Shown: one piece after another, positions 1 through 16,808 of the stretch
Layout of the letters: every line of letters starts with the position of its first letter
Position numbering within the stretch: the stretch's first letter is position 1
Origin: Ettlia oleoabundans
Taxonomy: Eukaryota; Chlorophyta; Chlorophyceae; Chlamydomonadales
Assembly (NCBI GenBank): GCA_019693395.1
Contig: JAAMXP010004347.1
Coordinates: forward strand, 1 to 16,886
DNA length: 16,886 nt
Reading direction: 5' to 3'
Made by a program: the position numbers and the translations under genes
The notes under the pieces: generated by a model
Told to the model about the DNA's origin: nothing
What the model saw: only the letters and a program-made list of their open reading frames with translations
Database searches by the model: none

Positions 1-603
1 GTGTTAAGCTGGGCAGGCTGTCTATTGCAGGGAGGGGTCCGATGGGGGTTGGGGTTGGGGTTGGGACACGCTTCTCAACTAAAATCTTCCAGTCTAGCAC
101 AAGTCTTAGTGCGCGAAACTTGGGTTTAGGGCTCACCCATTTGGCACAGCATTTTTTGGGGTCTTTGCACAGCTGGCCGTTGCTCCGGACGCCGCACGCA
201 AAGTTACTCTTGCTACGCTGCTGGCCTGCACATAAATGAAAAACAAAGTGATCTTTCATGATGCAGTAGCGTTGAATGAGAACGGTGCTGATGCTGTAGC
301 TATCCGACATATAGCGCAGCTGCAACAGCTGCTGAAGCTCACTGCCGCCACTACGGAGCAGAGAAGTCGGTGGAATGAGGCTGGGATACGACGGCAGTCG
401 ACTGAGCAGCACCATCAGCCTTTGCGTCCCACTAGGATTGCATCGCACCTTCCTACGAACTTAGAACAGCACTGGCATGGGAAACAGTCAGAAAGGCAGA
501 GCTCACCAGCTGCTGTGCCGGCAAGCAGGGCCAGCAGAACCGTCAGCAGTTGCAGCAGGGCCTGCTGCGGACGGCCTGCAGGCCTCGCTGCCGCCTTGTC
601 CAT
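1..603 (-). CDS. Gene A: secreted hevein-domain protein, 5' end only (runs off left edge)
   Basis: This is the first part of a third paralogue of genes B and C. Exon 1 (603-507) starts at an ATG and encodes a 32-residue signal peptide with a Leu-rich core (LLQLLTVLLALLAGTAA). It ends in phase 1 at a GTGAGC donor, as the signal exons of B and C also end in phase 1. Exon 2 (225-137) follows a TGTGCAG acceptor and encodes the first half of a hevein fold, CGVRSNGQLC then KKCCAKW. It ends in phase 0 at GTGAGC, exactly where gene C is interrupted. The third exon, expected to begin with Gly-aromatic-Cys-Gly, is not in the window. By analogy with C, a lectin and a beta-helix module should follow to the left; this is inference. 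The predicted sugar-contact Trp after the CC pair is present, but the preceding Ser is Ala. Confidence 0.72.
44..65 (+). repeat. Short TTGGGG tandem run (telomere-like, G-quadruplex-prone)
   Basis: GGGGG is followed by three consecutive TTGGGG-type units, the last imperfect. The run lies inside the second intron of gene A; on the transcribed RNA it reads as CCCCAA repeats. It is too short to be a telomere. It could be an interstitial telomere-like or G-quadruplex sequence, or just a microsatellite. Confidence 0.6.
137..225 (-). other. Hevein-type chitin-binding half-domain exon of gene A
   Basis: The exon codes for the first four cysteines of a type-1 chitin-binding domain: C-x8-C-x4-C-C, as in CGVRSNGQLC and KKCC. 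This spacing matches hevein. The other four cysteines lie beyond the left edge. The phase-0 intron after CCAKW is at the same place as the hevein intron of gene C. Confidence 0.75.
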
Positions 604-1243
604 GCAGGCAGGTAGCGGACGCGACTTTAAAGCTCAATCTGCATCGAGAGGAGGCCGGAGCCGGGCGCATAACTCCCTTTGGTGGGCCATGCCGGTCCAC
701 ATGCCCGGCGTTCACCGCCAGCACGCCCCTGACAGCCAGCCGTCGATTTGTCAAAAGTTGCAATTCAAAAGCAACACTCATAGTGGCGTTTTACCACCTG
801 TCGAGCACGTGCCCACAGTCGGGCGGGCCCCGGCGTCTCGTCACCGCAACAGAGCCCCGCTAGCCCCTTTAAAACTATTGTGTGAATGTGATGTTTACGA
901 TCGTAATACTACAGGGTGTTCCAAGGCTTTGTTGCGGGTGTAACGGCGATACCAAGCACTACGCTCGGCTGTACGGCAGGGTCACACTTGCAGTTCTAGG
1001 CGGCCGCAAGCGCATAAATTGTTGTCCGTCAATGAACACGTGATATAACGTGGCACAATACTGGGATTTAGTTGCCAGCAAGCCTTCACAGAGGTATGGG
1101 GTGAAACAAGTACAGCGGACACATAGTACGCGAAAGGAACAATCATGAAAGAACATTCATATGCAATCAACATGTATGTAGCAGCCCCAGCTTGTGGATG
1201 GTATCCGCCGCCTCGTCTCAGATGGTCGCCACCTGCAGCGGAT
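604..1243. other. Spacer between genes B and A (B 3' UTR plus A promoter)
   Basis: This 640 bp stretch separates the TGA of gene B from the ATG of gene A. It should hold the 3' end of B and the promoter and leader of A. I found no TGTAA (the usual green-algal poly(A) signal) on the minus strand here. The only TGTAA, near 938, is on the plus strand. TTTAAA-type AT patches occur near 625-632 and 867-873, but I cannot call a TATA box. No exon-like signal was recognised. Confidence 0.5.
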
Positions 1244-1960
1244 TCAGCGCATGCGGCCTGCCCTGCGTGCTGCCAGCTGCGCCGAAAAGAGGTCTGCTGG
1301 GTAGGGTTTTCTGCCGCCATCTAATTGCTCCACAAACCACCCTTCACCGCTGCACCATGGGCTGACCGCCTGCGCTGACACTGTGACGTTGGCACCAAAT
1401 GCCTCGGTTGCATCGCCTGTTTCTGCCTCTTCTTCTAGCAGCCTGCGCCTCGTTTTACCTGTGCCCGGTGAGGTCCAGAGACCGAAGAAGTTGAGCAGCG
1501 GCCCAAAACTGCAGGGAGGCAGCCCTGCCGCCTTGCCAGAGCTGGGCCCCACAGCCCACCAGGTCGTGTTGGCGGCCGTGTGCGCTCCGCGTGAGCTTTC
1601 GCCGCCGCTGACGAAAATCCGCTGTCCCAGCCCCGCATCTATGTTGGTGAACAAGTTGTTGTGAACAGCTGCATGATAAGGGACAAAGGCGGGAGATTGA
1701 AATGAGTGTGTGGTGCATTTCATGCATGATGAGGCCACAAAAGCAAGGTACGATTGTAGGTACGATGGCAGGAGTGTTGGCTTTTTGTGTCGCCAACCAG
1801 CCCTTGCGCCCCAGCAGGGCCAAGTGGCCAGCCCTAAGTCCACCCACCTGCCCTATGGCAGTCAATGTTGATGTCCATTCCCCTGCCGTTGGCGTACACC
1901 GTGTGCTCTGCCATGGAATCAACCGACAGATCGTGGAACCAGCGCTGCGGGATGTCAAAC
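1244..1960 (-). other. C-terminal beta-helix cap module of gene B (resembles DUF4955)
   Basis: The last two exons code for ANGRGMDINIDCHR, then HNNLFTNIDAGLGQR, SGGESSRGAHT, NTTWWAV and FGPLLNFFG, ending in a Leu/Ala/Arg-rich tail. The order matches gene C block by block. From memory it also resembles a C-terminal module of pectate-lyase-like proteins in Bacteroidota and relatives, which I believe is DUF4955; I could not search this. Gene B has this block in one final exon after the HR site, whereas gene C has an extra intron after GAYA. Confidence 0.55.
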
Positions 1961-4900
1961 CTGCGGCAGTTCAGGTGGATGACAGCAAGGGCGTGGCAGG
2001 GGGCCAACTCGTGGGGACATGCCCATGCAGACAGTATCAACAGACCATGTACATCAGTGTCATGGTCCCCCCTGCCAGCATCCCCGAATGCACGGGAAGA
2101 AGTAGCCCTAGTGGTGCATGCTGCAGCACTCAACCGCCCTTTGCTAAGGAAAAAAACGGTTTCCTCACACGAATTTGCTTGATATTTTGTTGAACAGAAT
2201 ACTATTGGTAACTTCATAGTCACTCACCGATTGACGAGCACAAGGCTGCAAGAGGAGGTCCAGATGGCATGGTGGCCGCTCACTTTCTTTTTTTCCATAG
2301 GTCCAGTGCCACTGTAAGATACGAGCAGTACGCAGGACCACCAACAATGGCGGCAGCGAGGGGTGCGCGCGCAAGTTGACTTTCTGGCGGGCCCCGGCAA
2401 AGGAGAAACACACAACTTAACCAAAGACACATCCATCTGCCAATGGAGTTTGAGCCCAGGGGCAGCGACAGCAGCCACATACCACCCACCGGAATTTGGT
2501 GAAATGTGTGGAAATGTTGGAGAGCGTCACAAAGTCGACGCCGCTGGCAATGACGCCATTGTCAGCGTCGACGAACTTAACCTGCACAGCACAGTGCAGG
2601 ACAATGCAGAGGCAGGTGAGAGGTAGCTCAGGACCAGGCGCGAAGCAGCTAAGGCGAGCACAGTACGACAACTGATGCCAGCGACAGTAAGCCGACATGC
2701 TGTGCCCGGGCCTAACAACAGCCTAGGTGCTTGCCAAGACTGAGCACAAGCGACACATGCACAGCTTGCTGATAGTTATAAAATGCAGCAGGCAAGAGCG
2801 GTAGATGCTGCTGGGCCCACATTTGACACCCAGCTGTTGGCTGTGTCATACAGGGCGATCCCATTGTTGCCCTTCACATCCAAGTGGTCAGGGTAGGTGC
2901 CTGCAGCAGATGATTGATTACACCAGCAACAAGGGATGTCACCAGCCAGCTCCATCAGTTCATCTGTTGAACAGTGGCAGGTAGGGTCATGTGCAATGCC
3001 ACATGTTTGCACTGGTGGCCCTGATGGGAGCCTAGCAGCTGGCATGACTCACTCCACTTAAACACCATCTGAAAGCTCTCAAAGCCGCAGTCGGATACTC
3101 TGGGCAAGAAGCGGTGCAACACTGGCTGCAGGTATTTTGGGGGGAGGGTGGGGACAGAACGCAGCAGCTGTCAAACTCTGCTGCCTTCAGCATGCCTTCA
3201 ACATCCCACAAGAGAGCAGAATAGCGAAGGAGGGGAAGCCCCTGGCCGGCAATTAACTTGATGAGTTGTGTGGATAGGTAAGAAAACCTTTAAATGCAAT
3301 AGGTGCCTGTTCCCTGCGTACACAGCACAATCCAGGCTCACAATTGAGGCATGAGCTGTGCCTGCTCACCTTCCACTTAAGCCGCACATCATAGGGTAGC
3401 GGGCGCTCAAATTCCACCCAGTTGGAGCCCACTGCCACCACCTTTGATATGTAGCGAATGCGCTCCTTGCCGTAAAACATGTCTGCAGATCGAGAGAGAA
3501 GTGAGGGCAAGCAAGTATGACAGGCAGAACAGCCTGCCCAACGCTGGGCCTCCAAGTCCCATGCCTGCCTTGATCCCTTCCTGCATTGCATGCTGCTTTG
3601 TTGGGGCCAAGACTTCCAGCAAGGACAGCAGACACGCTGCAACTTACTCTTCACAGTGCCACTGTCCACAACATTGTTTCCATACAGGTAAGATTCCAAG
3701 GATCCCATCGCTGCTGTGGCAAGGGCTTTGTCGGGATCTGCGCGAAGTTGTGGGAGGAAAGTGCATTTGCGGCTACTGCTGCAACAGCTGCCCACACACT
3801 TCTCACCCGCGTTGGCAGCCTTGCACCTTGCCATTGGCAGGCCCCATGGTGCCTGCTGCACTATGCCTGCCCAACCTCCTCACCTTCCTCGTCCTCTAAA
3901 GCTTCCGACTCCATGGCCAGCGAGCCGTAGAGTGCGGCAGCCAGCAGCATGGGGTCCAGCCCAAGAGGGTTGGTAGCATTTGGCTCAAATGCTTGGGAAG
4001 GCACCTGCAGATTACAGGGCACAGGGACCCGTAAGCTCATCAGCCCCACCACCTGGGGATCCGAAGGCTGCCACTGTCCACCCAAATCATTAACCACTGC
4101 ATTCATGCATCGCCGCAAGTTTTATTAGGTGTGGGATGGACTGCTGTGTGACATGAACATGCACCTTAAAACCAGAGCCCAGGAGCTGTGCTGCAGAATA
4201 TAAGACCCCACCGACCTTGCCGCAGGAACCCACCCACGTTGCTCCACCCACCCACCCACCTTGGTTGGATCCGCGTCCACAGCTGCCGCAATTTCCCACT
4301 GCGCCCTTACAGCAGCCTCCAGCGCCTTCTGCAGCTGCGGATCCTCATAAATCTGCAGGATGACGGGCCCATCCCGCTGCTGCGGTTGCTGCTGTGGCGG
4401 TGGTGCTGCTGTGCCTAGCACTGACACCTTTCCTGTGGGAATAGGCGGCAGGTCCTGCCGCAACCTGCGGCCTGCCCGCTGCATCGGCATTGCGCTCTCG
4501 ACGCTTTGCAACCTCCTGCGCTTTGTGTTGTCGGCTGCTGGCATGAACAACCGAAGCCACATGCCAGGGACAATTCCGCTGGTGCTAGCAACCTGCAGTG
4601 CCGAAGGGGCAGGGGTTGTGAGGCGGTCTTTGGGAGCCAAACGCAACACCGACTGACACTGGAAAGGAGCACACGTTTTTGAGCAAGTGGGGCACTGCAA
4701 CTGGCATGCTAGCGCGTGACAGATGGCTATTATGAACCAGCAGTATGGACCCAGCAGCGCATCCCAAACAGTAGGCCCCAACCGAATACGCACCACATTC
4801 GCACCTGCAGCCGGTAGTCCCCTCTGTTTGCCTCTCCTGACACGGTTGTGAGCCTGGTGGGCACATCAGCGCTGTCCATGCGCTTTCCCACAACGCTGCA

Positions 4901-7900
4901 GGTGGCAAAGAAGCAAGAGTGTATGGCAAGTCGTTGATGCCTTGTATCACCGCTGTACCGCTGTGCATAGCTAGTCACCATGTGACAGGAGACCAGCTTT
5001 AGGCCCAAAAGGTGGCAGTAGCTGCACGGGTCGCAGGCAGCAGCAGTAGCAGAGTTGCATGCCATCCTTGCTCATGAGATGAAAACATGCATCCTCCTGC
5101 TGAGCTAACTCAGCACAGCATGGCACGCGCAGCATGACATCACTAGCGTATGGCATGCTAAGGATCCCATTAGGGCTCCCGCCACAGCAACGTCATGATG
5201 GTCGAAAAAGCAGCCAGCTGAGTCGGGCAGCAGCATCACCTCCTGCCTGAGCAGGACCCACCTGAACCAGGCGCCGCCAAACGCCCAGTTCCGGGAGCTG
5301 CCATACACCGACTCAAGTGGAACTGGAAAGTACAGGATGCACCGCTCAACCTGCACATAGGCAGCACCCCATGCTTGGACATTCACCTTCCAGCCTGCCT
5401 TAAAACTTGGCTTGGATGCTTCGCTGTCTCATGTTTGCTGGATAACTGGATGCCAGCCACGCCATGGCAATCTGCGATGACCGGCAACGTGCGCAATTTG
5501 ACGCCACACCACACCGATGTCACAAACAGGACCGAAGGACAGACACTGCAGTCTCACCGAGGATCCACGCAGTACAACGTTGCTCTGGGTGATAGTAACG
5601 CTCTTACGAATGACGTACGTGCCATCTGGGATAAACACAGCCACTCCCCTACGCGTCTTTCCTGCCTCAGCTGAGGCGGCATCAATGGCTTTCAGGAAAG
5701 CGTCGCTGTCATCTGCACCAATTCACGTTTGCGGTGATTCAGCAAGCAGCTGACATGCCCCAGCGTTTACCAGCTGGCACCAAGGCAGGAGCTGAATATA
5801 GCGGTTTCAATTTTGAGCTGACTGCCAAATACAGCTACCTCGCTGCCAGGGGTTGAGCACCATATGCATACCTATGGCACCCTCCCTGAGCTGCAACATG
5901 AATAACTACAGCAAGAACAGCTTCCTGGCAGGCAGCAGCACTGATACCAGTGCCTACATCCCTCAATCTCAATCAAAGTGCCTACCAGTAGAACCATCTC
6001 CTCTTGCGCCAAAGTCACGAACATTAAATTTCACAGGGTACACTGGTAGGTCACGTAGGCTGGCTGCGCCAGCAGGGTCACGACAGAGAGGAGGCAGGCA
6101 GGGCTGGGTGAATGTGAGTGGCAGATCAAATGCTCAGCTGACTTCCACTAAGCCGGTTGAGTCCCAGGGCAAACGCACCCACAAGGTATCTGTGCATAGC
6201 CACCTTTCGGCCTATGTACGCATGACAACAACAGGCTGAACAGAAAGGAGTCCTTGCTTTCCTCCCAACCAGCGACAACACCCCTGCAGCAATCTGTAAA
6301 ACAGGCGCAGCAGCAGCGGCACAACCAGCACTATCATCAGCAGCAGGATTTGTCGGCAGCAGGCCCACCATTGTAGCCAGCCTGGCTCCAGTCGCCTAGA
6401 CGCCCCCCTGGGCTGTAAAGCTCTCCATTTGATCCCCACAATTGAGATGCCTGCTGAGAACCCATATCTGGCGGAGGGCGACTGGGTCTGGGGGGTGGAG
6501 GGGACGGATGCGGGCTTGGTGGAGGCGGCCGCGGTGGGGGTGAGGCAGGCGGGGGTGGCAATGGGGATGGGGAGGGTGGCGGTGGGGAAGGGGACGGGGA
6601 TGGTGATGGAGGCAGTGGGGATGGCGGCGGTGGGGATGGGGGTGTGGAGGGTAGAAGTGGGGAAGGTGGAGGTGGAGAAGGGGATGGCAGGGGCAGGTTG
6701 CCAGGCGATTGGCCACCCTTTGAGCTACACCTGCAACACAGGGCAGCAACGCAGGCGGTGCTGTTTACAACAAGTTTCCGCACATGGCCTTTTCACCCGC
6801 AGCAGTGCTTCACCACACAAGGAGCCAACCATCCCTGCGCCAGAAGGATGTCAGCTTGCCTCCTAGCTGTGTGCCGCTCTGGCCTTACAGACCACCATAG
6901 CTGCCAGCTGCATGCATTGGCCAAATGCCTCGTGAAAGCTTCAATGCGAATTGCTTCTGAACCCGCAACTCACTTGTAGCCAAAACTCAGCGTTTTTCCA
7001 GTTCCTGGGGGGCAGGCGTCCGTAAAAACGTCGTTGGACGCCCTCACAATGCACGCGTGCAACCCAAGGCAAGCTGCTGCCACAATGCTGCAGCAAAAGG
7101 ACCGCAGCATTGCAACAAGCCACAGCAAGGAGCAAGCCATGGATATTTGATAAAAAATCTCAATTGTAAGACTGGCGTGCAGGTTTCAGCATCCGTGCCG
7201 GGCAGCCTTACCATCAAAACGATTGAGCACGGGCAGCGGCAGCCTCGCCAGCGGTCATACATGTGTGCGGCACCTTTGCTGCCACTCGTTCATCCATGCA
7301 ACTGGCTGATGGCAGGCAGCAGAGTGAGGCACATACACGCTGCTCTGAGAAACGTAGATAGCACTATTAACTCTGTGTGAGTAGGGGCGACAGACCTGTA
7401 GCTGTCTGAGGCGTTGCAGCCCAAGAAGGAGTTGCCATAGATAGGGTCCATGATGCTGGAAATCGATTCATCTTGCAGGTTACACCCCGCATACGCGACC
7501 CCTTTCTGTCCAACTACGACAGAAACATCTGGTCCATCGCCTGCAGTGGAGCTTGAAGACAGGGGCTGCAGTGATGCAGGCTAGCCAAGGTGCTACTGGC
7601 CACAGAAAATCCGGCATGCCTCACTGCTGTTCAGTGGCAAGTAGGATCCTTGCATGGTTCCCTTAGCTCCCCTGCATACCTGATGTATCCCCAGGGCTGA
7701 CAGGTGGCGAAGGCACAAACGCCGAGCCAGTGTACCCAGGGTTTTGCGCCAGGAAAAGTGGGTTTATGTCGGCATTTTGTGCCGCTGCCTTGCCTTTCGC
7801 CGCCTTTTCTATTGCATCTGCAAATATGAACCCGTGTTTGAGCAGCGGGTCAGGGTGCGCACATAATGCATATAGCAAAACACTAAAACCGACTAACGAT

Positions 7901-8030
7901 GAATTAGCATCGCAGGAGACAACGCCGTGCACCAAGCCTGCGTCGCACCTTTTTTGGCCGCTGCCGCCACGGCAGCACAAAGGAGCACCACCAGCAGCTT
8001 TCTTAGGCCCGCGAAGCGAGTTTTCCTCAT
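1244..8030 (-). CDS. Gene B: secreted SUEL-lectin / SPPP-linker / right-handed beta-helix protein (19 exons)
   Basis: Exons, transcription order: 8030-7949, 7817-7680, 7540-7396, 7087-6974, 6730-6369, 6063-5986, 5712-5558, 5350-5262, 4895-4805, 4592-4260, 4004-3884, 3737-3648, 3482-3370, 3125-3053, 2900-2821, 2581-2490, 2311-2228, 1960-1848, 1668-1244. They total 2778 nt, 925 residues plus TGA; every intron is GT-AG and phases match throughout. Residues 1-25 are a signal peptide (core LLVVLLCAAVAAAA). Residues 28-73 are an Ala/Lys-rich then Pro-rich segment. Residues 79-161 are a SUEL-type lectin (ISSI..PIYGNS, AACLGLHAC, FGYKC). Residues 173-247 are an SPPPP linker. From about 255 comes the beta-helix module: SPGGRLGDWSQAGY, YPVKFNVRDFGA, IPDGTYVI, SNVVLRG, ILYFP, ERPLPYDVRL, GHHAIW, ANGRGMDINIDCHR, then HNNLFTNI and GPLLNF. 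The chosen ATG gives a clean signal peptide; an in-frame ATG at 8096 would bury it. An extracellular glycan-directed role is inferred; the enzyme activity is unknown. Confidence 0.85.
6469..6693 (-). repeat. SPPPP-type proline-rich linker coding repeat
   Basis: About 75 residues made almost only of Pro and Ser (SPPPPSP units), inside exon 5 of gene B. This matches the hydroxyproline-rich rods that separate domains in algal extracellular matrix proteins such as pherophorins. It would probably be hydroxylated and O-glycosylated (family knowledge). The plus strand here is an imperfect GGGGATGG-type purine run, so the DNA is repetitive and G-quadruplex-prone. Gene C has only a short KPxPKP-type linker at this place. 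Confidence 0.85.
6727..7526 (-). other. SUEL / galactose-rhamnose-binding lectin domain of gene B
   Basis: Encoded across exons 3-5, residues 79-161. The pattern follows the Gal_Lectin (SUEL) family: a strand ending in Cys (VAYAGC), ISSI then IYGN, a Cys-containing loop (GCNASDSY), the AACLGLHACIV segment, SNDVF.DACPPGTGKTL, and a terminal GYKC. Six cysteines match the six in gene C's lectin. Both internal introns (phase 2 and phase 2) are shared with gene C. Family members bind galactose or rhamnose; the specificity here cannot be read from sequence. Confidence 0.75.
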
Positions 8031-9116
8031 TGCTGTTGTTGATAATTGATGTGGACGTTGGCCTGCAGCAGCGTTGCCGGGAGCCGTCCAATACAACGCG
8101 CGTGCGCGGCAGTGCCGGACGGGTACAAGAGTAGTACTCGGGGCAAATGTCGAGCCTCAACAAGTACGCAACGCAGGGAGCACCCGCTGGGAACTGCCGA
8201 GGCACCGATGCAAGCCAGAGGCGGCGGTTGGTTGTAAACGGGAGGCTAAAGGCCAGTAATAATGCTACATAGGTTAATTTGATCGATTATACGACTTTAT
8301 CGCTTGGAATCAGCCTTGGATGCAACGATTGAACCGATCGAGGACCCAACCGGTTGCAACCGTCCGTAGCTGGAGCTCAGCATGCCCAGCACGATGCACC
8401 CCGCTGCCAGTTGGCAGTACCCCCGCCAACTTGGCCAGCAGGGCATTTGATCGGCACGAAAACATAGTGCTGAGTTGAATACACTGATTTGGAGAAAGTT
8501 TCTGTAGCAACTGGCTACCAATGACAGTGGCAGCTGCTGCTCTGAGAGCTCTGAAACTTTGCAAATCCAATTGGAAGCTTGCTGCGCTGCAGCAAGTACC
8601 CAATGGGCCCCTTAACAACTGCTTTGACTGAGTTGGCTCTTTCAGGGGTTTTATGCGGCCACTGGTCATGATTGTATTTAGTTACAGTAGGTCAAGATAG
8701 CACTGGCGGTGGAGCGCGCGGCGGGGACGCGCTGGACGGAAGGCATCATTACAAATGCTTGAAAAAGAATGGGGGAATGAGAAGAATCTCTAGGAATCCT
8801 TGGTGGTAGTGCATTACGCAAAGAATTAAAATCGCAACAAATCAGACCGAGGCAAGAGAGCCAGCCCAGCATGCATGGGGCTGTACAGGAGATCCTGGGT
8901 TGGCAGAATGGGGAAGGGCAATTTCATTGCAAGGCCCTTCCCTGCAGACAACCCTCAAAGAATGTCAAAACAATGGCAACCCATACTATTTGGTGGCGAC
9001 GGCTGACTGCGGTGGCAAGACGCATCGTCAACAAGCCCAGCCTGTCATAGCGCCACACCCGATAACCCAGGTGATGGCAGTGCCCGGGTTGTTGAGCACC
9101 ATCAACCAGTGCCTGC
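8031..9116. other. Spacer between genes C and B
   Basis: About 1.09 kb between the TGA of gene C and the ATG of gene B. It probably holds the C 3' UTR on the right and the B promoter and leader on the left. Minus-strand TGTAA motifs occur at 8749-8753 and 8682-8686. A weak TATA-like element (GTATAAT on the minus strand, 8286-8292) lies about 255 bp before the B start codon. Open frames exist (for example minus 8310-8669), but none shows a domain, signal peptide or splice pattern that I can support. Confidence 0.5.
8749..8753 (-). terminator. Candidate TGTAA poly(A) signal for gene C
   Basis: TGTAA is the usual polyadenylation signal in chlorophyte nuclear genes. This copy is about 365 bp past the gene C stop, a plausible 3' UTR length. 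A second TGTAA at 8682-8686 is an alternative. Five-base motifs occur by chance, so this is only a candidate. Confidence 0.35.
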
Positions 9117-9947
9117 TCAGCCCGCCACTCGCTTGACACGCCTGGCGACCATTGCTCGGTACATGTCCAGTGGTTCCAGTCGCTTGTTGAGCGGCTTGTT
9201 CTCCACCCACCACTGATGGGCCTCGCACCAGTGAGTCCGCCGCCCATCATTCAGCAAGAGCCGCTTGCCAGAGCGCTTTGGTTGTGCTGGCGCCGAGAAG
9301 CTGCCAATGAACACGAGGTGCGGCCCAAAATCGCAGCTTGGGAGCGGCACCTGGCGGTTGGCGGCTGGTCGCACGTTCCAGATGGTGTTGTTGGCAGCTG
9401 CAGCCGGTATGAGGGAGCCACAGTGGGCATCGCAGCAGCATGTGAGTGTGAACAAGGAAGTTATCAATATAGATTCCCTGTTCCCAGGGAAGTTGAGCAC
9501 ACATTCATCAAGCCCTGATCTTGAATTTACAACTCTTTGGGTAGCGTGCCCTTCCCACCTGCATATGCGCCACGGTTTTTGGCGCCACCGCTGTGGAAAG
9601 GCCTTGTTCCCCTCCCCAGGTTGATGTTGCTGGCCAGGTTGTTGTGAGGGCCTGCAAGCCAGGAAGCAGCAGGATTCACATATCAGAGCGTCAACTATAC
9701 TGCAAGCCCGCGACATTGCAACGTGCAGCAGGCAATACGGTGGCTGGAATACGTGGGCGAATGAGGATCTGAGCTTGCTAGCAAAATAGAAAGCAGTGTT
9801 GGTGGTGTGCCAGTGATGTCGCCAGTGGCAGAGAAATGCACAGGCAGGGAATGCATAGGCAGGGGAACAACGGGGCAGGAGAGGGGCAGGGCTCACCTCC
9901 TCTGTGGAAGTCAAGGTTGATGTTCACCCCCTTGCCGTTGGCAAACA
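9117..9947 (-). other. C-terminal beta-helix cap module of gene C (resembles DUF4955)
   Basis: Three exons code for ANGKGVNINLDFHR, HNNLASNINLGRGTR, SGGAKNRGAYA, NNTIWNV and CDFGPHLVFIGSF, then WVENKPLNKRLEPLDMYRAM near the end. Alignment with gene B is block by block. The resemblance to a bacterial C-terminal domain of beta-helix proteins (I believe DUF4955) is from memory and unconfirmed. An intron after GAYA is absent from gene B. Confidence 0.55.
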
Positions 9948-12900
9948 CTGCAGCCAGAGGCAACCAACTAGGGGTCGGCACATGCCGTATGCCATCATAA
10001 GAGCATCTTTGACACGCCCCTGTCAAACAGCATGCACCCTGCCGTGCGATGTGCCCCCACTGCTCGACTTATCCCAATCTTCATGCGCACTTCCCTCGCA
10101 CACCCCAGACATCTGGCTCCCACTCACCTAAGTTCTCTGAGAACACAGCAAAGGTGATGTCGTGGATGTACTCAGTATTTATGTTGAAGTTGGTGAACAC
10201 TGTGTTGATGGCACGGCTGCCCCACAGAGCATGGTGGCCGTTAGATGGGAAGGTCAGTGGCGTATGCCTGCACAGCACAGCAGCAGACAACGCTTGGCGC
10301 TTTGCTTTATTACAAAGCAGCCCGCTTGCAGCTGCCCTCACTTAAGGCTCTCAAGACCAGCCAGCCAGCATTGCCCTGGGAAGTATCGCTTTTACCCTGT
10401 CCTCATGCGGGCCACTCAAGCACAGCGCACGGCGAGACACTCGGCTCACACAAGCGCTTCCCATCAGCCCTGCTGGCCGCTTTCACGGATGCAACCAGCC
10501 CAGCTGGAGGCTTCTGGCAGGCAGCGGCAGGCGGCGGCTGGCAGCGGCAGCTGCTTGCCTGGGTTGTGAAACAGCCACCGTGACGCCCGTCACAGTGACA
10601 AAGTCGGACCGGAAGACGCCAAATGCGTTGTCCGCATTCACCACTTTAACCTGCAGCGGAGCAAGAATGGCACCGCCACAGCCAGCGGCGTCAGGCGGGT
10701 GTGTGCCAGCATCCTGTGTCCAGCAGGGGACATGCCCCACTGCGTTGTGCAGGTACACAAAGGCAACGGCATGCTTGAACCGGCTGGCTTCTTACCTTGC
10801 GGATCCAGCAATTGCCAGAATCCAAGATGGCCACCCCGTTGTATCCATGAGCGCTGTGGTGTTCAGGGTATTTATCTGAAAGGCACAGTCACCGCACAGA
10901 GCACCCCAGACAGGTGTTGCTGTTGTGGTTTGAACTACGATGCGCGGCAGGCACACAGCATGCTGTGAGCAAGTCAAGTGGCACATTGCTGAGCACAATC
11001 CTGGCCAACAAGGTGAGCCAGTTCCAATCTCACCTGGCCGGAACCACACGGTGAAGCGTTCAAAGCCGCTATGCTGCACTTGCGGAGCGTACCGATTTAC
11101 CCAAGGCTGCAGAGTGGGAAGGAAGGGGCACATCAGCCAGCGAGGAAGCAGGCAGCAAGGCGTGACTCAGCTGGCTGTGGTACCGAGCTCGCCATGCACA
11201 GCAGTAGGCAAACAACAGCTGGCTGTTGGTGTGTAAGTGAGTTCACAGGCCAACAACTGTTGCACGGTGACTGCACACTGCCCTCTACTCATCCACTTAT
11301 GTACTTTCTGAACCTGCTCGCTGTGCTTGAACCAAAGACCAAGCCAAGCAATTACTCAGGCAAACAGCACACCCACCTGCCAGTGCAGGCGCAAGTCATA
11401 GTTGAGAGGTCGTTCCAATTGGATCCACTTAGGCCCCTTGGCAATCACCCTGCGGGAGGTAGGGTCACAAAGGATGGCTACATGCAGAAGGAAGACGACG
11501 GTATGCCAGGTGCCGTGCAAGCGAATTTTGGTTGCAAGGCTGGTACAGGATGCAGGGAGGAAAAGCAGGATGGATCTACCTCGATATGAAGCCGATATGG
11601 TCAGCTTTGTCAAAGGAGTCTGCAGCAGCAAAGGGTCTTGCTTTTACCCACAACAAATCTCAGTGGGACAGTCACAAGTGCATTGAACCAGCTAGTGCCC
11701 CTCCCAGCCAGACCAAACACCAGGACATGATTGGAGCTGCAGTTGTTGACTGTGGGCAGGCAAGTGCTGCCACTCTGACGGTTGCTGCTGGCCCTAAATC
11801 CTTACTTCTGCCACTGTCGACATGGGGCATGTCGCCGTAGAGGTAATCATCCAGGCTTCCTGGCGCAGCAGCAGTGATCACCCCGTCTTCCTCAGCTTTG
11901 TCCGCCATCAAATCATACTTCCCCCATTCCAGCGCTTCCCGGAGGGCAGGCGTCAGGGGCATAAACCGCCCTCTGTCGCCTGCTGCAGCTGTCCTGTTTG
12001 CCTGCAGCATGTGCCGTTGCCATTGCTGCCGCTCCTGGGGTGCCTGCTCATCTTCTGCAGAGGTCAGCCTCCGTCCGGTTGGTCCCCGGTACCGCTCCCT
12101 GGCTACTATGCGCACCCACATGCCCAGCTGAATGTCCGTGGTGCTTCTGACCTGCATGACGGAAGGAGGAAGCAAGAGATGCAGGCAATCATTGCCCTTG
12201 GACAGGGTGCAGGCTCGCTACTGGTTCCATTTTCAGTGCGAGCATCGCTTCGGCAAACAATCACCCACCACTTCAAGCAACCCACCTGCAACAACCTGTC
12301 ACCACGCCGTGCGGGGGCTGTGAGGGGGGCGATAGCGGACCTCTCATGCTTGAACCCAGGGTTGAAGCCGGCAATGCTGCAGAGTGGCACAGTGGGGGGC
12401 AAGCAGGAGCCGGGCAAGCATTGACACCTGTTTCATGCTACAAAGAGTGTCAGAACATAGAGACCTGGTGCACACACTTATGTGCTGAGGCAGCACCATG
12501 CACTTGCATGCCCCAATGCCTGCTGCTATGGGGTTCTGGCCGCAAAAGCAACAAGTGGTTTATGAACTGGCGAGTCAGAAGGCAGCAGCAAAGGGTGTGC
12601 GGGACGCACGAGATGAAAGAACCAGAGTTGGCCCATTCCTCCTTGTTGCCGTAGATCGCGGACAAGCTTTTTGGGAAGTAGAGAATCGTTTTTTTAGTCT
12701 GCATTGGTCAGCACAGACAGAGTTGACGGCCATGACCATATCGCAGCTGAATGCCAGTTGAGGGCTTAGGTCCTGCCTTGCTCGACAATCGCACAGGCTG
12801 GTCACTGCACGGACCAGTTCTGCTGTTGCTACAGCCTGTGGCCACTGGCGCTGTGCTCACCCCTGCACCACGCAGCACCACATTGCTCTGCAGAATCTCC

Positions 12901-15219
12901 AAGGCCTCTGTGATGCGGTATTTGCCGGCAGGAACCAGGATTGCAACACCTCTACCTCCCTTGTTCTGGAAACCGCCTCCTGGCTCCGGCGCCTGCAGGG
13001 CAGCAGCGGATGGCTGGAACTCATGGTTTTCTTTGGTACTCCAAGGCTCGTTGTGTTCAGTGCTGCTCCAGCAGGCATGATTTGTTGGCTAATGAGTATA
13101 TGGCTCTATGTTGGTGTGAGTAAACACAAATTCATCGTGCTGCTGTTTCCAGTGTGCCGCTATTGTGTCGCGAAAAGAAGAACGAGCCGCATACCTCGCT
13201 CATGGTGGCTGCAAGCCTTGATGCGGCTTCAATGGCCTTCTTGAAGGCAGCCGTGTCATCTGCAAATACGAACACTAGGCGCAGCAATCTACCAGACAGT
13301 TAACAAGGGTCTTGTCAAAAAACTAGCTGGGGGCCAAGCTGAGCGCACAATCAAGATTGGACTGAGCAATCCACTGACAGGCACGCATGTGCCTCACAGA
13401 ACCTGGCGGCTGCTCCTCGCATACCTTTTCTTTGGTTGCCAACGGCGCCAAATGCCTTGACGTTGAAGCGCACAGGGTAGTTTGGTATTTTAGCTTCATT
13501 AGCTGCAGCAAGTGATATCGAAACAATTTGCCCCTAGTCGACTACGAAGCAGCCAACAGTCATGGACCTGCTCCCGGAAATGTGGTGGCAGAAGGGAACA
13601 AACCAACTGCATCCTAACAAGTCAGCCACCGCTGGCAGTATTGGTCAAAACACATGACGCTTGACAGCAGCAAAGCAAAGTACACACACATGCCAGGCCA
13701 AAGTTGCACCCACCCATGTAACCGGCATAGCTCTGGTCCGTGAGCTTGGATCGAGGGGTCCATGGCCTGCCCTCAATGCCCCAGAGCGAGCTACGCATGA
13801 TATTAGGGTTTGGTTTTATAGCAGGCTTCGGGTTTGGGATTGACTTGGGTTGGACGGTTGGCTTGCCACACCTGTAACAGGAGGCATGCTGGGTGAAGTT
13901 AACTCGCTGTACTGCACCCAGGAAACCACGTTGGTCAGCACTCGCCCTTTTTCTCCACTCACACCAACAACAGCGCCTGTGACGCCACAACAGGCGACAC
14001 TATCGAGTCATTGGGAAAGATACTGAGCAGCTGAGGCAACTGGTGTGTGCAGGCGGAGGGAGTCGACATCCGCGCTCTTTTGATCGCAAGCACTCTGCAT
14101 ACCAGATGATCAGCTGGACCCGCAAGTTTTGCCATGTGAACTAGCGCCAAATCATTTTTAAGGCTGCCTAAAAAATGATCCATCCTGCCCTGCTTGCAGC
14201 CCTCAACCACCAGCAACAGTAGCAGCAGTTGTTGACTCACTGATAGCCCAGCCGAAGCGATTTACGGACTTTATGGCACGGGACGCCAAGCTTTGCGTTA
14301 GTGACAGGGATGGCGCACTTGGACTTGTGCAGGCATGCTGCGGTAACAGCATTGACAACCCTGCAAAGTGGCACACAAATGCATGGGATGCAAGTGACTT
14401 TAGGACAAGGGGGCATATGCTATTTAATACCTTGGCAGGTTTAAACGACAGGAAGCAGCAGGGGTAGACTGCATCTGAACTAAGGGCATCCTTGGGCACA
14501 CCTTGGCGAAAACTTAGTTCCGCACTTCTTGGCTGGGTTGCCGTACCGCACGCCCCATAGTGACGAAATGACGTTTCCGCCCTTGCATTCAAGACGAGCT
14601 GTTCCGCCCTGCCGAACTTCAATGATACGTCTGGAGGTTGCAGAGGCAGCATTAACCTGCTGCTTGGGTGTGGGCTTGGGCAAGGGGGCTACCTTGCCCG
14701 TGCAGGCACCGCTGTGGCAGTTGCCCATGCTACAGTACTGTATGCCAGTGCCGCAGAAGCCCTGCATGATTGGTGCATGCAGGCAGGACGAGTAAGTGGT
14801 GGAGCCGGCCTCCATTGCCAGCAGCAGCTAAATTACATGAACAAAAGAGTGGCTCACAGCTCGAGATGGGGTTTTCATGATTATAAGATGCGAATGCTTA
14901 CCCGAATACTGCAGCATTCCTTTGCACCGGCACATTGCTTGTTACCAGCTTCCGGTCCACATTGGACTGCAACGATGAATGACAAGGCGTTGATAGAGTG
15001 TAGAGGGTAGGGTGCGACAGAAGACGGTAGCTGCCCCAGCATGCAGCAGTAGCATGGGTGACCTTGCTGATCCACATGAAAAAATGCACTTGGCATGAAC
15101 GAGAGGTAGTATGCTTGCCTTCAGGCGACATAGGCAATGTGGGACAGACCTGCGTCTGCTGGAACAGCTGCAAGTGCCAGCACGACCAGCACCGCCACCG
15201 ACACACGCCAGCTGACCAT
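9117..15219 (-). CDS. Gene C: secreted hevein / SUEL-lectin / right-handed beta-helix protein (19 exons)
   Basis: Exons, transcription order: 15219-15150, 14966-14902, 14761-14502, 14360-14241, 13871-13714, 13502-13425, 13259-13195, 12992-12861, 12698-12610, 12376-12286, 12151-11806, 11477-11377, 11106-11034, 10875-10796, 10650-10559, 10267-10128, 9947-9897, 9651-9559, 9397-9117. They total 2385 nt, 794 residues plus TGA, with all phases agreeing. Residues 1-23 are a signal peptide (VSVAVLVVLALAAVPADA). Residues 26-65 are a complete eight-Cys hevein domain. Residues 89-173 are a SUEL lectin. Residues 174-200 are a Pro/Lys linker. The rest is a beta-helix module: GIEGRPWTPRSKLTDQSYAG, YPVRFNVKAFGA, VPAGKYRI, SNVVLRG, ILYFP, ERPLNYDLRL, GHHALW, ANGKGVNINLDFHR, HNNLASNI and FGPHLVF. 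One intron (10558-10268) is GC-AG. Least certain is the donor at 14501 inside the lectin. An extracellular, glycan-binding role is inferred; catalysis is not established. Confidence 0.85.
13868..14632 (-). other. SUEL / galactose-rhamnose-binding lectin domain of gene C
   Basis: Residues 89-173, exons 3-5. Family features: IIEVRQGGTARLEC, VISSLWGVRYGNP, a short Cys loop, VVNAVTAACLHKSKCAIPV, GVPCHKV.KSL and the closing GYQC. It has six cysteines, at the same relative positions as the gene B lectin. The intron in the middle depends on an AG-GTGTGC donor at 14501. The donor is not ideal, but it gives the same phase and position as the B intron and restores the frame. Confidence 0.75.
14702..14961 (-). 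other. Hevein-type (chitin-binding type 1) domain of gene C
   Basis: Residues 26-65 show all eight cysteines with hevein spacing: CGPEAGNKQC, KECCSIR, then GFCGTGIQYC, SMGNC and HSGAC. Hevein domains bind chitin and other GlcNAc polymers. Of the usual sugar contacts, Ser after CC is kept, the first aromatic (Trp in hevein) is Arg, the second is Phe, and the later Tyr is kept. A phase-0 intron splits the domain after CCSIR, as in gene A. Confidence 0.88.
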
Positions 15220-16662: not shown

Positions 16663-16808
16663 TCATGACCCTGTGCAGGAGAGGTAGAGGTCTTGCAGGT
16701 CGAGCTCGCATTGATCCCGCTGCGGCACACACTCGCTCAGCTCGTTGTAGCAGGTATGATTGGAGCTCCTCAAGTCGATGAGTTCATTGTAGACGGTGGC
16801 ACCATCCT
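16663..16808 (-). CDS. Gene D: last exon of an unrelated cysteine-containing protein (partial)
   Basis: A minus-strand reading frame with coding character ends at a TGA (16663-16665). It reads EDGATVYNELIDLRSS, then HTCYNELSECVPQRDQCELD and LQDLYLSCTGS. Upstream is a strongly pyrimidine-rich tract ending in CGCAG, a good acceptor, so I begin the exon at 16808. The frame stays open as a Pro-rich stretch to the window edge, so the exon could be longer. Four cysteines with acidic and Leu residues suggest a small disulphide-bonded or helical C-terminus. It does not resemble the C-termini of B or C. I do not recognise the family. Confidence 0.4.

What the first reader, a model, noticed from the sequence alone, without database searches (positions are those of the whole stretch)
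1..15219. Tandem array of three multimodular lectin / beta-helix genes
Three same-strand paralogues sit head to tail (starts at 15219, 8030 and 603). Each has a signal peptide. The two complete ones join a glycan-binding lectin to a pectate-lyase-like beta-helix with a distinctive C-terminal cap. I do not know a described eukaryotic family with hevein + SUEL + beta-helix + this cap in one chain. It could be an algal wall or sheath remodelling system, or one aimed at glycans of other organisms.
Basis: partly seen in the sequence, partly recalled or inferred. Interest (0 to 1): 0.78.

Follow-up and report, generated by a model that had tools for sequence, protein, structure and literature searches.

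The report
Algal lectin-fused polysaccharide lyase-like genes
A Chlorella-like green alga carries side-by-side genes for secreted proteins that join sugar-binding lectin domains to a beta-helix related to bacterial hyaluronan/chondroitin lyases, probably for cutting acidic polysaccharides of its own cell wall.

Summary
Gene A (15219..9117, 20 exons, 798 aa): signal peptide, hevein, SUEL lectin, beta-helix. Gene B (8030..1244, 19 exons, 925 aa): signal peptide, SUEL, proline-rich linker, beta-helix. Gene C (603..<1) is cut by the contig end after a signal peptide and half a hevein domain. Ortholog-guided spliced alignment reproduced most junctions, and A and B share 13 introns in position and phase. 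In Micractinium tetrahymenae the two orthologues carry consecutive locus tags, so the pair is probably old.

The beta-helix plus "cap" is a known bacterial module. Its only biochemically characterised relatives found here are the BT3328 / PL29 glycosaminoglycan lyases, whose C-terminus is Pfam DUF4955. A and B hit the BT3328 family model (E 6e-15, 1e-13), as do 69 of 69 aligned relatives; A and B lie far below its strict cut-off. A His/acid set is kept. Best reading: a secreted, lectin-targeted, PL29-like lyase on uronic-acid polysaccharide of a rhamnose-, galactose-, glucosamine- and uronate-rich wall. Activity, substrate and lyase versus hydrolase are untested. The same architecture occurs in unstudied Micractinium proteins; ten paper searches found nothing on it. 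New variant of a known kind.

The parts
9117..15219 (-). Gene A, 20 exons, 798 aa: signal peptide, hevein, SUEL lectin, short Pro/Lys-rich linker, beta-helix core with C-terminal cap
   Evidence: models; Pfam; exons 4-19 reproduced by ortholog-guided alignment; groups with M. tetrahymenae P0133
14702..14964 (-). Gene A hevein / chitin-binding type 1 domain, residues 25-65, split by intron 2
   Evidence: PF00187 E 6.4e-6 (26.8 bits, cut-off 27.8); 8 of 8 cysteines
13868..14593 (-). Gene A SUEL (rhamnose/galactose-binding) lectin domain, residues 102-173, across exons 3-5
   Evidence: PF02140 E 1.7e-8, over cut-off; one search match to a solved rhamnose-binding lectin 5h4s E 1.6e-5
9117..13792 (-). 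Gene A beta-helix core plus cap (PL29-like module), residues 199-798
   Evidence: PF12708; NF058554 BT_3328 family E 6.4e-15 (best stretch residues 215-412); conserved residues
10268..10558 (-). The only GC-AG intron of gene A (intron 16)
   Evidence: same boundaries
1244..8030 (-). Gene B, 19 exons, 925 aa: signal peptide, SUEL lectin, proline-rich linker, beta-helix core with cap; exons 1-3 and 5 provisional
   Evidence: exon 4 and exons 6-18 reproduced; groups with C. ohadii P0001, Micractinium P0002 and P0003
6727..7484 (-). Gene B SUEL lectin domain, residues 93-161, across exons 3-5
   Evidence: PF02140 E 4.5e-7 (30.6 bits, cut-off 31.4); 6 cysteines and two introns shared with gene A's SUEL
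6460..6714 (-). Gene B proline/serine-rich linker in exon 5
   Evidence: sequence; internal structure of this exon not fixed
1244..6447 (-). Gene B beta-helix core plus cap (PL29-like module), residues 255-925
   Evidence: PF12708 1.4e-15; NF058554 E 1.4e-13 (best stretch residues 273-440)
137..603 (-). Gene C, first two exons: signal peptide and first half of a hevein domain; the rest lies beyond the contig end
   Evidence: exon 1/2 and 2/3 junctions have the same phase and hevein position as gene A; no Pfam hit for its 62 aa

Best explanation
Genes A and B (and probably C) encode secreted multimodular enzymes of the alga's own cell wall. The catalytic part is a right-handed beta-helix distantly related to PL29 polysaccharide lyases. 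It binds a uronic-acid-containing chain in its groove and cuts it by beta-elimination, using a conserved His/acid cluster. The SUEL domain (rhamnose/galactose) and, in A, the hevein domain (GlcNAc polymers) hold the enzyme on the wall matrix next to its substrate; in B a proline-rich linker separates lectin and enzyme. Shown here by computation: gene structures (5' part of B provisional), domain order, ancestry of the core, conserved residues, and consecutive locus tags of the two orthologues in another genus. Inferred: secretion, sugar binding, lyase chemistry, own wall as substrate.
For: Domain order and signal-peptide-like starts. NF058554 (BT3328 family hyaluronic acid endo-lyase) is the best NCBIfam match of A (6.4e-15) and B (1.4e-13) and matches 69 of 69 members of alignment A2 at E 1e-5 or better. 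Profile-profile comparison of A2 with 6 BT3328-type proteins: probability 100, E 2.2e-56, 456 columns, residues 15-504 of 509. A profile of 11 algal cores against only 3 close BT3328 proteins: probability 98.7, 408 columns, against 61 and 113 columns for two proteins that share PF12708. An over-cut-off BT3328 protein has PF12708 (just under its cut-off) and DUF4955 with the same DFSYAGY motif. H286, H350, H374, D/E398 and H400 (P0008 numbering) are kept in A, B and the 5 BT3328-type rows aligned. BT3328 cleaves CS, DS and HA by endolytic beta-elimination (passages of PMC9067506). Chlorella vulgaris wall: rhamnose 35%, galactose 22%, glucosamine 12% of the acid-hydrolysed fraction, and a reported 15-20% uronic acids (passages of PMC12142970): sugars these modules would be expected to meet. 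The orthologues of A and B in M. tetrahymenae are ABPG75_013751 and _013752, both listed with an 8,844,789-base contig.
Against: No activity, expression or localisation data. PL29 kinship is distant: 54.4 and 50.0 bits against a cut-off of 1100, with best stretches over the first ~170-200 core residues. Gene A or B alone against the 3-protein BT3328 profile aligns over 166 and 158 columns only, and B alone against one BT3328 protein reaches probability 35.6. D314, R401 and R419, kept in most of the family, are not kept in the BT3328 rows, so chemistry may differ. The nearest solved folds mix phage tailspike depolymerases, lyases, C5-epimerases and GH28 hydrolases. Hevein of A has Arg where hevein has an aromatic residue, and both SUEL domains lack parts of the textbook sugar-binding motifs (recalled), so binding may be weak or altered. 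Bacterial relatives show no conserved lyase-type neighbourhood in the sample scanned.
Confidence: 0.5

Rival explanations
1. Same secreted fusion enzyme, but aimed at glycans of other organisms or of infection: bacterial or fungal exopolysaccharide, a protist host's surface, or the hyaluronan and chitin fibres that chloroviruses make on infected Chlorella-like cells.
For: The characterised relative BT3328 degrades hyaluronan. Chloroviruses cover infected host cells with hyaluronan or chitin; after hyaluronan lyase the surface resembles that of uninfected cells (passages of PMC5408694). A hevein + hyaluronan-lyase-like protein would match both polymers. C. variabilis, a host named in those passages, has a family member (P0004); Micractinium as a host is recalled.
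Against: Relatives occur in many bacterial phyla, among them Acidobacteriota, Verrucomicrobiota and Planctomycetota, so the ancestral substrate need not be hyaluronan. Lectin-free copies occur in the same genome. Nothing ties expression to infection.
Confidence: 0.15
2. The core is a glycoside hydrolase (rhamnogalacturonase/GH28-like) rather than a lyase; databases name some relatives 'glycosyl hydrolase family 28-related'.
Against: The NF049898 stretch in B is 58 residues at the N-terminal strip, and solved-structure matches have best stretches of about 30-105 residues there; NF058554 is stronger and longer. The conserved set is His-rich and by eye I do not see the GH28 Asp motifs (recalled) in it.
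Confidence: 0.15
3. A uronan C5-epimerase, or a non-catalytic wall adhesin that uses the beta-helix only to bind.
Against: The near-invariant His/acid set across bacteria, algae and BT3328 proteins argues for catalysis. Pfam lists no extra epimerase-type modules in A or B.
Confidence: 0.1
4. Gene-model artefact: lectins and beta-helix are separate genes that I joined.
For: No RNA-seq for this alga was available; models made by hand, and the 5' exons of A and B were not reproduced.
Against: Deposited or predicted proteins of relatives have the same fusion. P0006 (1192 aa) and P0134 (783 aa) are unbroken frames on contigs of at most 4087 and 2933 bases, which in such intron-rich genes look like transcripts (inference). 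A and B share introns inside SUEL and core.
Confidence: 0.05

Closest known systems
PL29 / BT3328 family (Bacteroides glycosaminoglycan lyase; NCBIfam NF058554)
   Same: Homology of the catalytic module from the DFSYAGY motif to the AQLxRRL end by profile comparison; PF12708-type start and DUF4955 end; conserved His residues and an acid
   Different: A and B far below the family cut-off; the over-cut-off protein seen here has an N-terminal DUF4988 and no lectin; algal members are eukaryotic, intron-rich, with hevein/SUEL; substrate unknown
Hypothetical proteins of Chlorellaceae (Micractinium tetrahymenae ABPG75_013751, _013752, _000228; Chlorella ohadii COHA_005425; M. conductrix 'band 7'; C. 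variabilis CHLNCDRAFT_137072)
   Same: Orthologues or paralogues with the same core; most with a SUEL match, some of them under Pfam's cut-off; P0005 and P0069 with hevein + SUEL
   Different: Number of SUEL copies (none found in the C. variabilis protein, 1-2 in the others named here, 4 in unnamed P0006); no hevein match in the direct orthologue of A
Uncharacterised bacterial proteins, some named 'glycosyl hydrolase family 28-related' (Acidobacteriota, Verrucomicrobiota, Planctomycetota, others)
   Same: Same ~510-residue core, about 25-42% identical over the aligned parts (loci)
   Different: No SUEL or hevein match in those scanned; P0143 carries CBM96 instead
Mannuronan C5-epimerases AlgE4/AlgE6 and GH28 polygalacturonases
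   Same: Right-handed beta-helix fold; PF12708-type start
   Different: Sequence similarity found only in the N-terminal strip; whether they hold equivalents of the His set was not tested

Membership tests
PL29 / BT3328 family | Homology over the whole catalytic module | tested here: met
   hhalign prob 100, 456 columns, residues 15-504 of 509; 11 algal cores alone 98.7, 408 columns; not reached by A or B as single sequences (166, 158 columns)
PL29 / BT3328 family | Score above NCBIfam's equivalog cut-off (1100 bits) | tested here: not met
   A 54.4, B 50.0 bits
PL29 / BT3328 family | C-terminal DUF4955 (PF16315) recognised | tested here: inconclusive
   Not matched in A or B at E up to 1; 14 of 69 members of A2 match at E 0.01 or better; profile alignment covers the region
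PL29 / BT3328 family | Conserved His/acid residues of the BT3328 proteins | tested here: met
   H286, H350, H374, D/E398, H400 in A, B and the 5 BT3328-type rows; their catalytic role is not known to me
PL29 / BT3328 family | Endolytic beta-elimination of glycosaminoglycans | not testable with these tools
   needs an enzyme assay
SUEL lectin (PF02140), gene A | Pfam gathering score reached | tested here: met
   35.2 bits against 31.4
SUEL lectin (PF02140), gene B | Pfam gathering score reached | tested here: not met
   30.6 bits against 31.4; six cysteines and two introns shared with A's domain
Hevein / CBM18 (PF00187), gene A | Pfam gathering score reached | tested here: not met
   26.8 bits against 27.8
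Hevein / CBM18 (PF00187), gene A | Eight cysteines of the hevein pattern | tested here: met
   residues 26, 35, 41, 42, 48, 55, 60, 65
Hevein / CBM18 (PF00187), gene A | Chitin binding | not testable with these tools
   one aromatic contact (hevein W21, recalled) is Arg in A
GH28 rhamnogalacturonase/polygalacturonase | Full-length similarity and GH28 catalytic Asp motifs | tested here: inconclusive

The most novel reading that the evidence does not exclude
Chlorella-type algae own a lectin-guided hyaluronan-lyase-like family aimed at the hyaluronan and chitin that chloroviruses spin onto infected cells (or at a host's matrix in symbiosis): hevein anchors to chitin or GlcNAc polymer while the PL29-like core cuts the uronic-acid chain.
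Probability: 0.06. Interest if true: 0.85.

Novelty: new variant of a known kind. Interest (0 to 1): 0.52.

Why it matters
It would put a PL29-like polysaccharide lyase, described in the passages I saw only from Bacteroides, into green algae, fused to lectin domains otherwise known from plants and animals (recalled). It offers a testable enzyme for the poorly understood rhamnose- and uronate-containing Chlorella wall, which limits cell disruption in biotechnology, and it gives candidates for virus- or symbiosis-related surface remodelling.

Tried and rejected
GH28-like from PF12708 alone was the first idea; demoted to a rival. Exon-wise family searches of the own genome: PF13229 no candidate; PF02140 5 places, none over cut-off; PF00187 1 place, under cut-off. 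They miss A's own split domains, so they are lower bounds.

Bacterial gene neighbourhood as a clue to substrate: 174 flanking frames were found around 35 of the 80 loci; 151 were carried over by hand into the next script, which picked the 119 nearest; I then left out 16 long ones and three loci with them, and 103 frames of 32 loci were scanned. Of 167 families the 25 commonest were shown: regulators with 4 members each, GH5 3, Beta_helix 3, sulfatase 2, heparinase II/III C-terminal 2; no glucuronyl hydrolase among the 25. No conserved context seen.

Origin: the tree of 43 cores joins the algal rows with Acidobacteriota-type rows (98/96). With 11 of the alga's further copies added, and L137, L138, L139, L127, L128, L102 and L100 dropped (C941 and C10 were not put in), green algal rows fall in several places; direction of transfer is unresolved.

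The P0005 model (hevein + 2 SUEL + core) has mean pLDDT 73 with hevein unresolved and was not used for fold search. Of the six comparison proteins, four (P0161-P0164) are relatives found and aligned better than the BT3328 proteins; only P0015 and P0016, weak PF12708-bearing hits, served as controls. In IMG/VR 1 of 80 listed loci is a near-full-length relative (L140); the other 79 match only between residues 14 and 243, mostly about 57-120.

Papers: ten searches (listings and abstract starts seen) covered Chlorella wall sugars, DUF4955 (0 papers), Micractinium or rhamnose-binding lectin, SUEL in green algae, the M. tetrahymenae genome, Chlorella + pectate lyase, PL29, Chlorella + PL29 (0 papers), and hevein/SUEL in Chlorella or Micractinium; no listed title describes this fusion. 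Passages only, found by terms, were read in PMC9067506, PMC12877422, PMC5408694, PMC12142970 and PMC8759652. The founding PL29 paper was not held.
Full report
Observation. The window is one whole contig (C1066, 16,886 bases) of a 32.9-Mb, 1230-contig assembly. The minus strand shows three genes head to tail. Splice models: A, 15219..9117, 20 exons, 798 aa; B, 8030..1244, 19 exons, 925 aa; C, 603..137 and on past the contig end. Introns are GT-AG but for one GC-AG in A. I then aligned orthologous proteins to the DNA with a spliced-alignment script that does not see my models. With P0133 it returned the same ends for A exons 4-19; with P0001 and P0002 it returned the same ends for B exon 4 and exons 6-18. 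At the 5' part of B it disagreed: with P0002, exon 1 ends at 7921 instead of 7949, exon 2 is not used, exon 3 starts eleven bases upstream and exon 5 is split; with P0001, exon 5 is shortened. For A it put another first exon (15053-14984) in place of my exons 1-2 and began exon 3 late; P0133 has no hevein match. So the 5' ends of both models are provisional, though the hevein match of A spans the exon 2/3 junction.

Domains. Pfam sees the PF12708 start of the beta-helix in A and B, SUEL over cut-off in A and just under in B, and hevein just under in A. All eight hevein cysteines and six cysteines in each SUEL are present. A and B are 38% identical over 765 aligned residue pairs. They share 13 introns (of 19 and 18) in column and phase, two of them inside SUEL, against 0.44 expected by random placement. 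The common ancestor therefore probably already had SUEL joined to the core. C's two junctions have the same phase and hevein position as A's, which is why I accept it as a probable relative of A; its core has not been seen.

Relatives. Searching the core of B and all of A gave Chlorella ohadii, Micractinium, C. variabilis and Scenedesmus proteins, unnamed ones, and bacterial proteins of about 510 residues. In the tree of 43 cores B groups with P0001, P0002 and P0003 (100/100), A with P0133 and P0134 (100/99), and a third group (P0005, P0006, P0069; 100/100) has hevein (over cut-off only in P0005) plus 2-4 SUEL. P0133 and P0002 are ABPG75_013751 and ABPG75_013752, both listed with an 8.84-Mb contig of M. 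tetrahymenae: the A-B neighbourhood appears conserved between genera, judged from consecutive locus tags. In the alga's own genome the A protein matches 45 places at E 0.01, 23 in the window and 22 on 12 other contigs; the tool calls such counts lower bounds. Spliced models show beta-helix cores at 12 further places on 9 contigs, several cut by contig ends, so the true gene number may be lower. They include three copies in tandem on C375 with no SUEL or hevein hit nearby. SUEL exons precede the core on C257; SUEL also occurs without a core in the stretches fetched from C10 (cut by the contig end), C461 and C565.

Active-site candidates. In 43 aligned rows, 5 of them BT3328-type, H350, H374 and W440 are invariant. 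H286 and H400 are kept in 42 of 43, E272 in 41 of 43, and position 398 is Asp or Glu throughout. Genes A and B keep all of them. D314, R401 and R419 are kept in most of the family but not in the BT3328 rows. That pattern fits a shared chemistry with different substrate contacts; which residue is the base is not shown.

Likely function. BT3328 is a surface lyase that cuts chondroitin sulfate, dermatan sulfate and hyaluronan by endolytic beta-elimination (passages of PMC9067506). The acid-hydrolysed fraction of C. vulgaris wall is 35% rhamnose, 22% galactose and 12% glucosamine, and 15-20% uronic acids are reported for the wall (passages of PMC12142970, and PMC8759652, which also note that reports differ). 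SUEL, hevein and a uronate-cutting core fit that list, so I favour a wall-anchored lyase for loosening the matrix at growth or daughter-cell release. This step is inference. A viral-matrix target is attractive, since chloroviruses coat infected cells with hyaluronan or chitin (passages of PMC5408694), but nothing here shows it. The lectin motifs of A and B depart from textbook sugar-binding residues (recalled), so their specificity is open.

Context and novelty. Among sources that carry a name, lectin-fused versions were seen only in Chlorella and Micractinium; Scenedesmus P0156 has no lectin match. The ten paper searches found no paper on the fusion. I rate it a new variant of a known kind, a eukaryotic lectin-armed branch of a PL29-related superfamily, with real but moderate interest until an activity is shown.

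Noticed in passing
window 16664-16807 (-): Last exon of another, cut gene upstream of A (48 residues ending LSCTGS*), no Pfam match
   Followed up: partly
L113 and L114 (own genome C375): Three beta-helix genes in tandem in the same alga without lectin hits nearby, two of them close relatives of each other
   Followed up: partly
P0017 (1256 aa): A protein with two beta-helix cores in tandem; source organism not named; its first core has lost two of the family's conserved His
   Followed up: no
L140 (IMGVR_UViG_3300027888_000004): A 142-kb contig filed as viral carries a near-full-length relative, 39% identical (residues 14-476); may be a misfiled bacterial contig
   Followed up: no
own genome C461, C565 (L121, L123): SUEL lectin domains without a detectable beta-helix core in the stretches fetched
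   Followed up: no
P0143: A relative of unnamed, probably bacterial, source joins the same core to a CBM96 module, a parallel case of adding a sugar-binding domain
   Followed up: no
P0069, Micractinium conductrix: Deposited under the name 'band 7' although Pfam finds hevein (below cut-off), two SUEL and the beta-helix start; the name looks wrong
   Followed up: no
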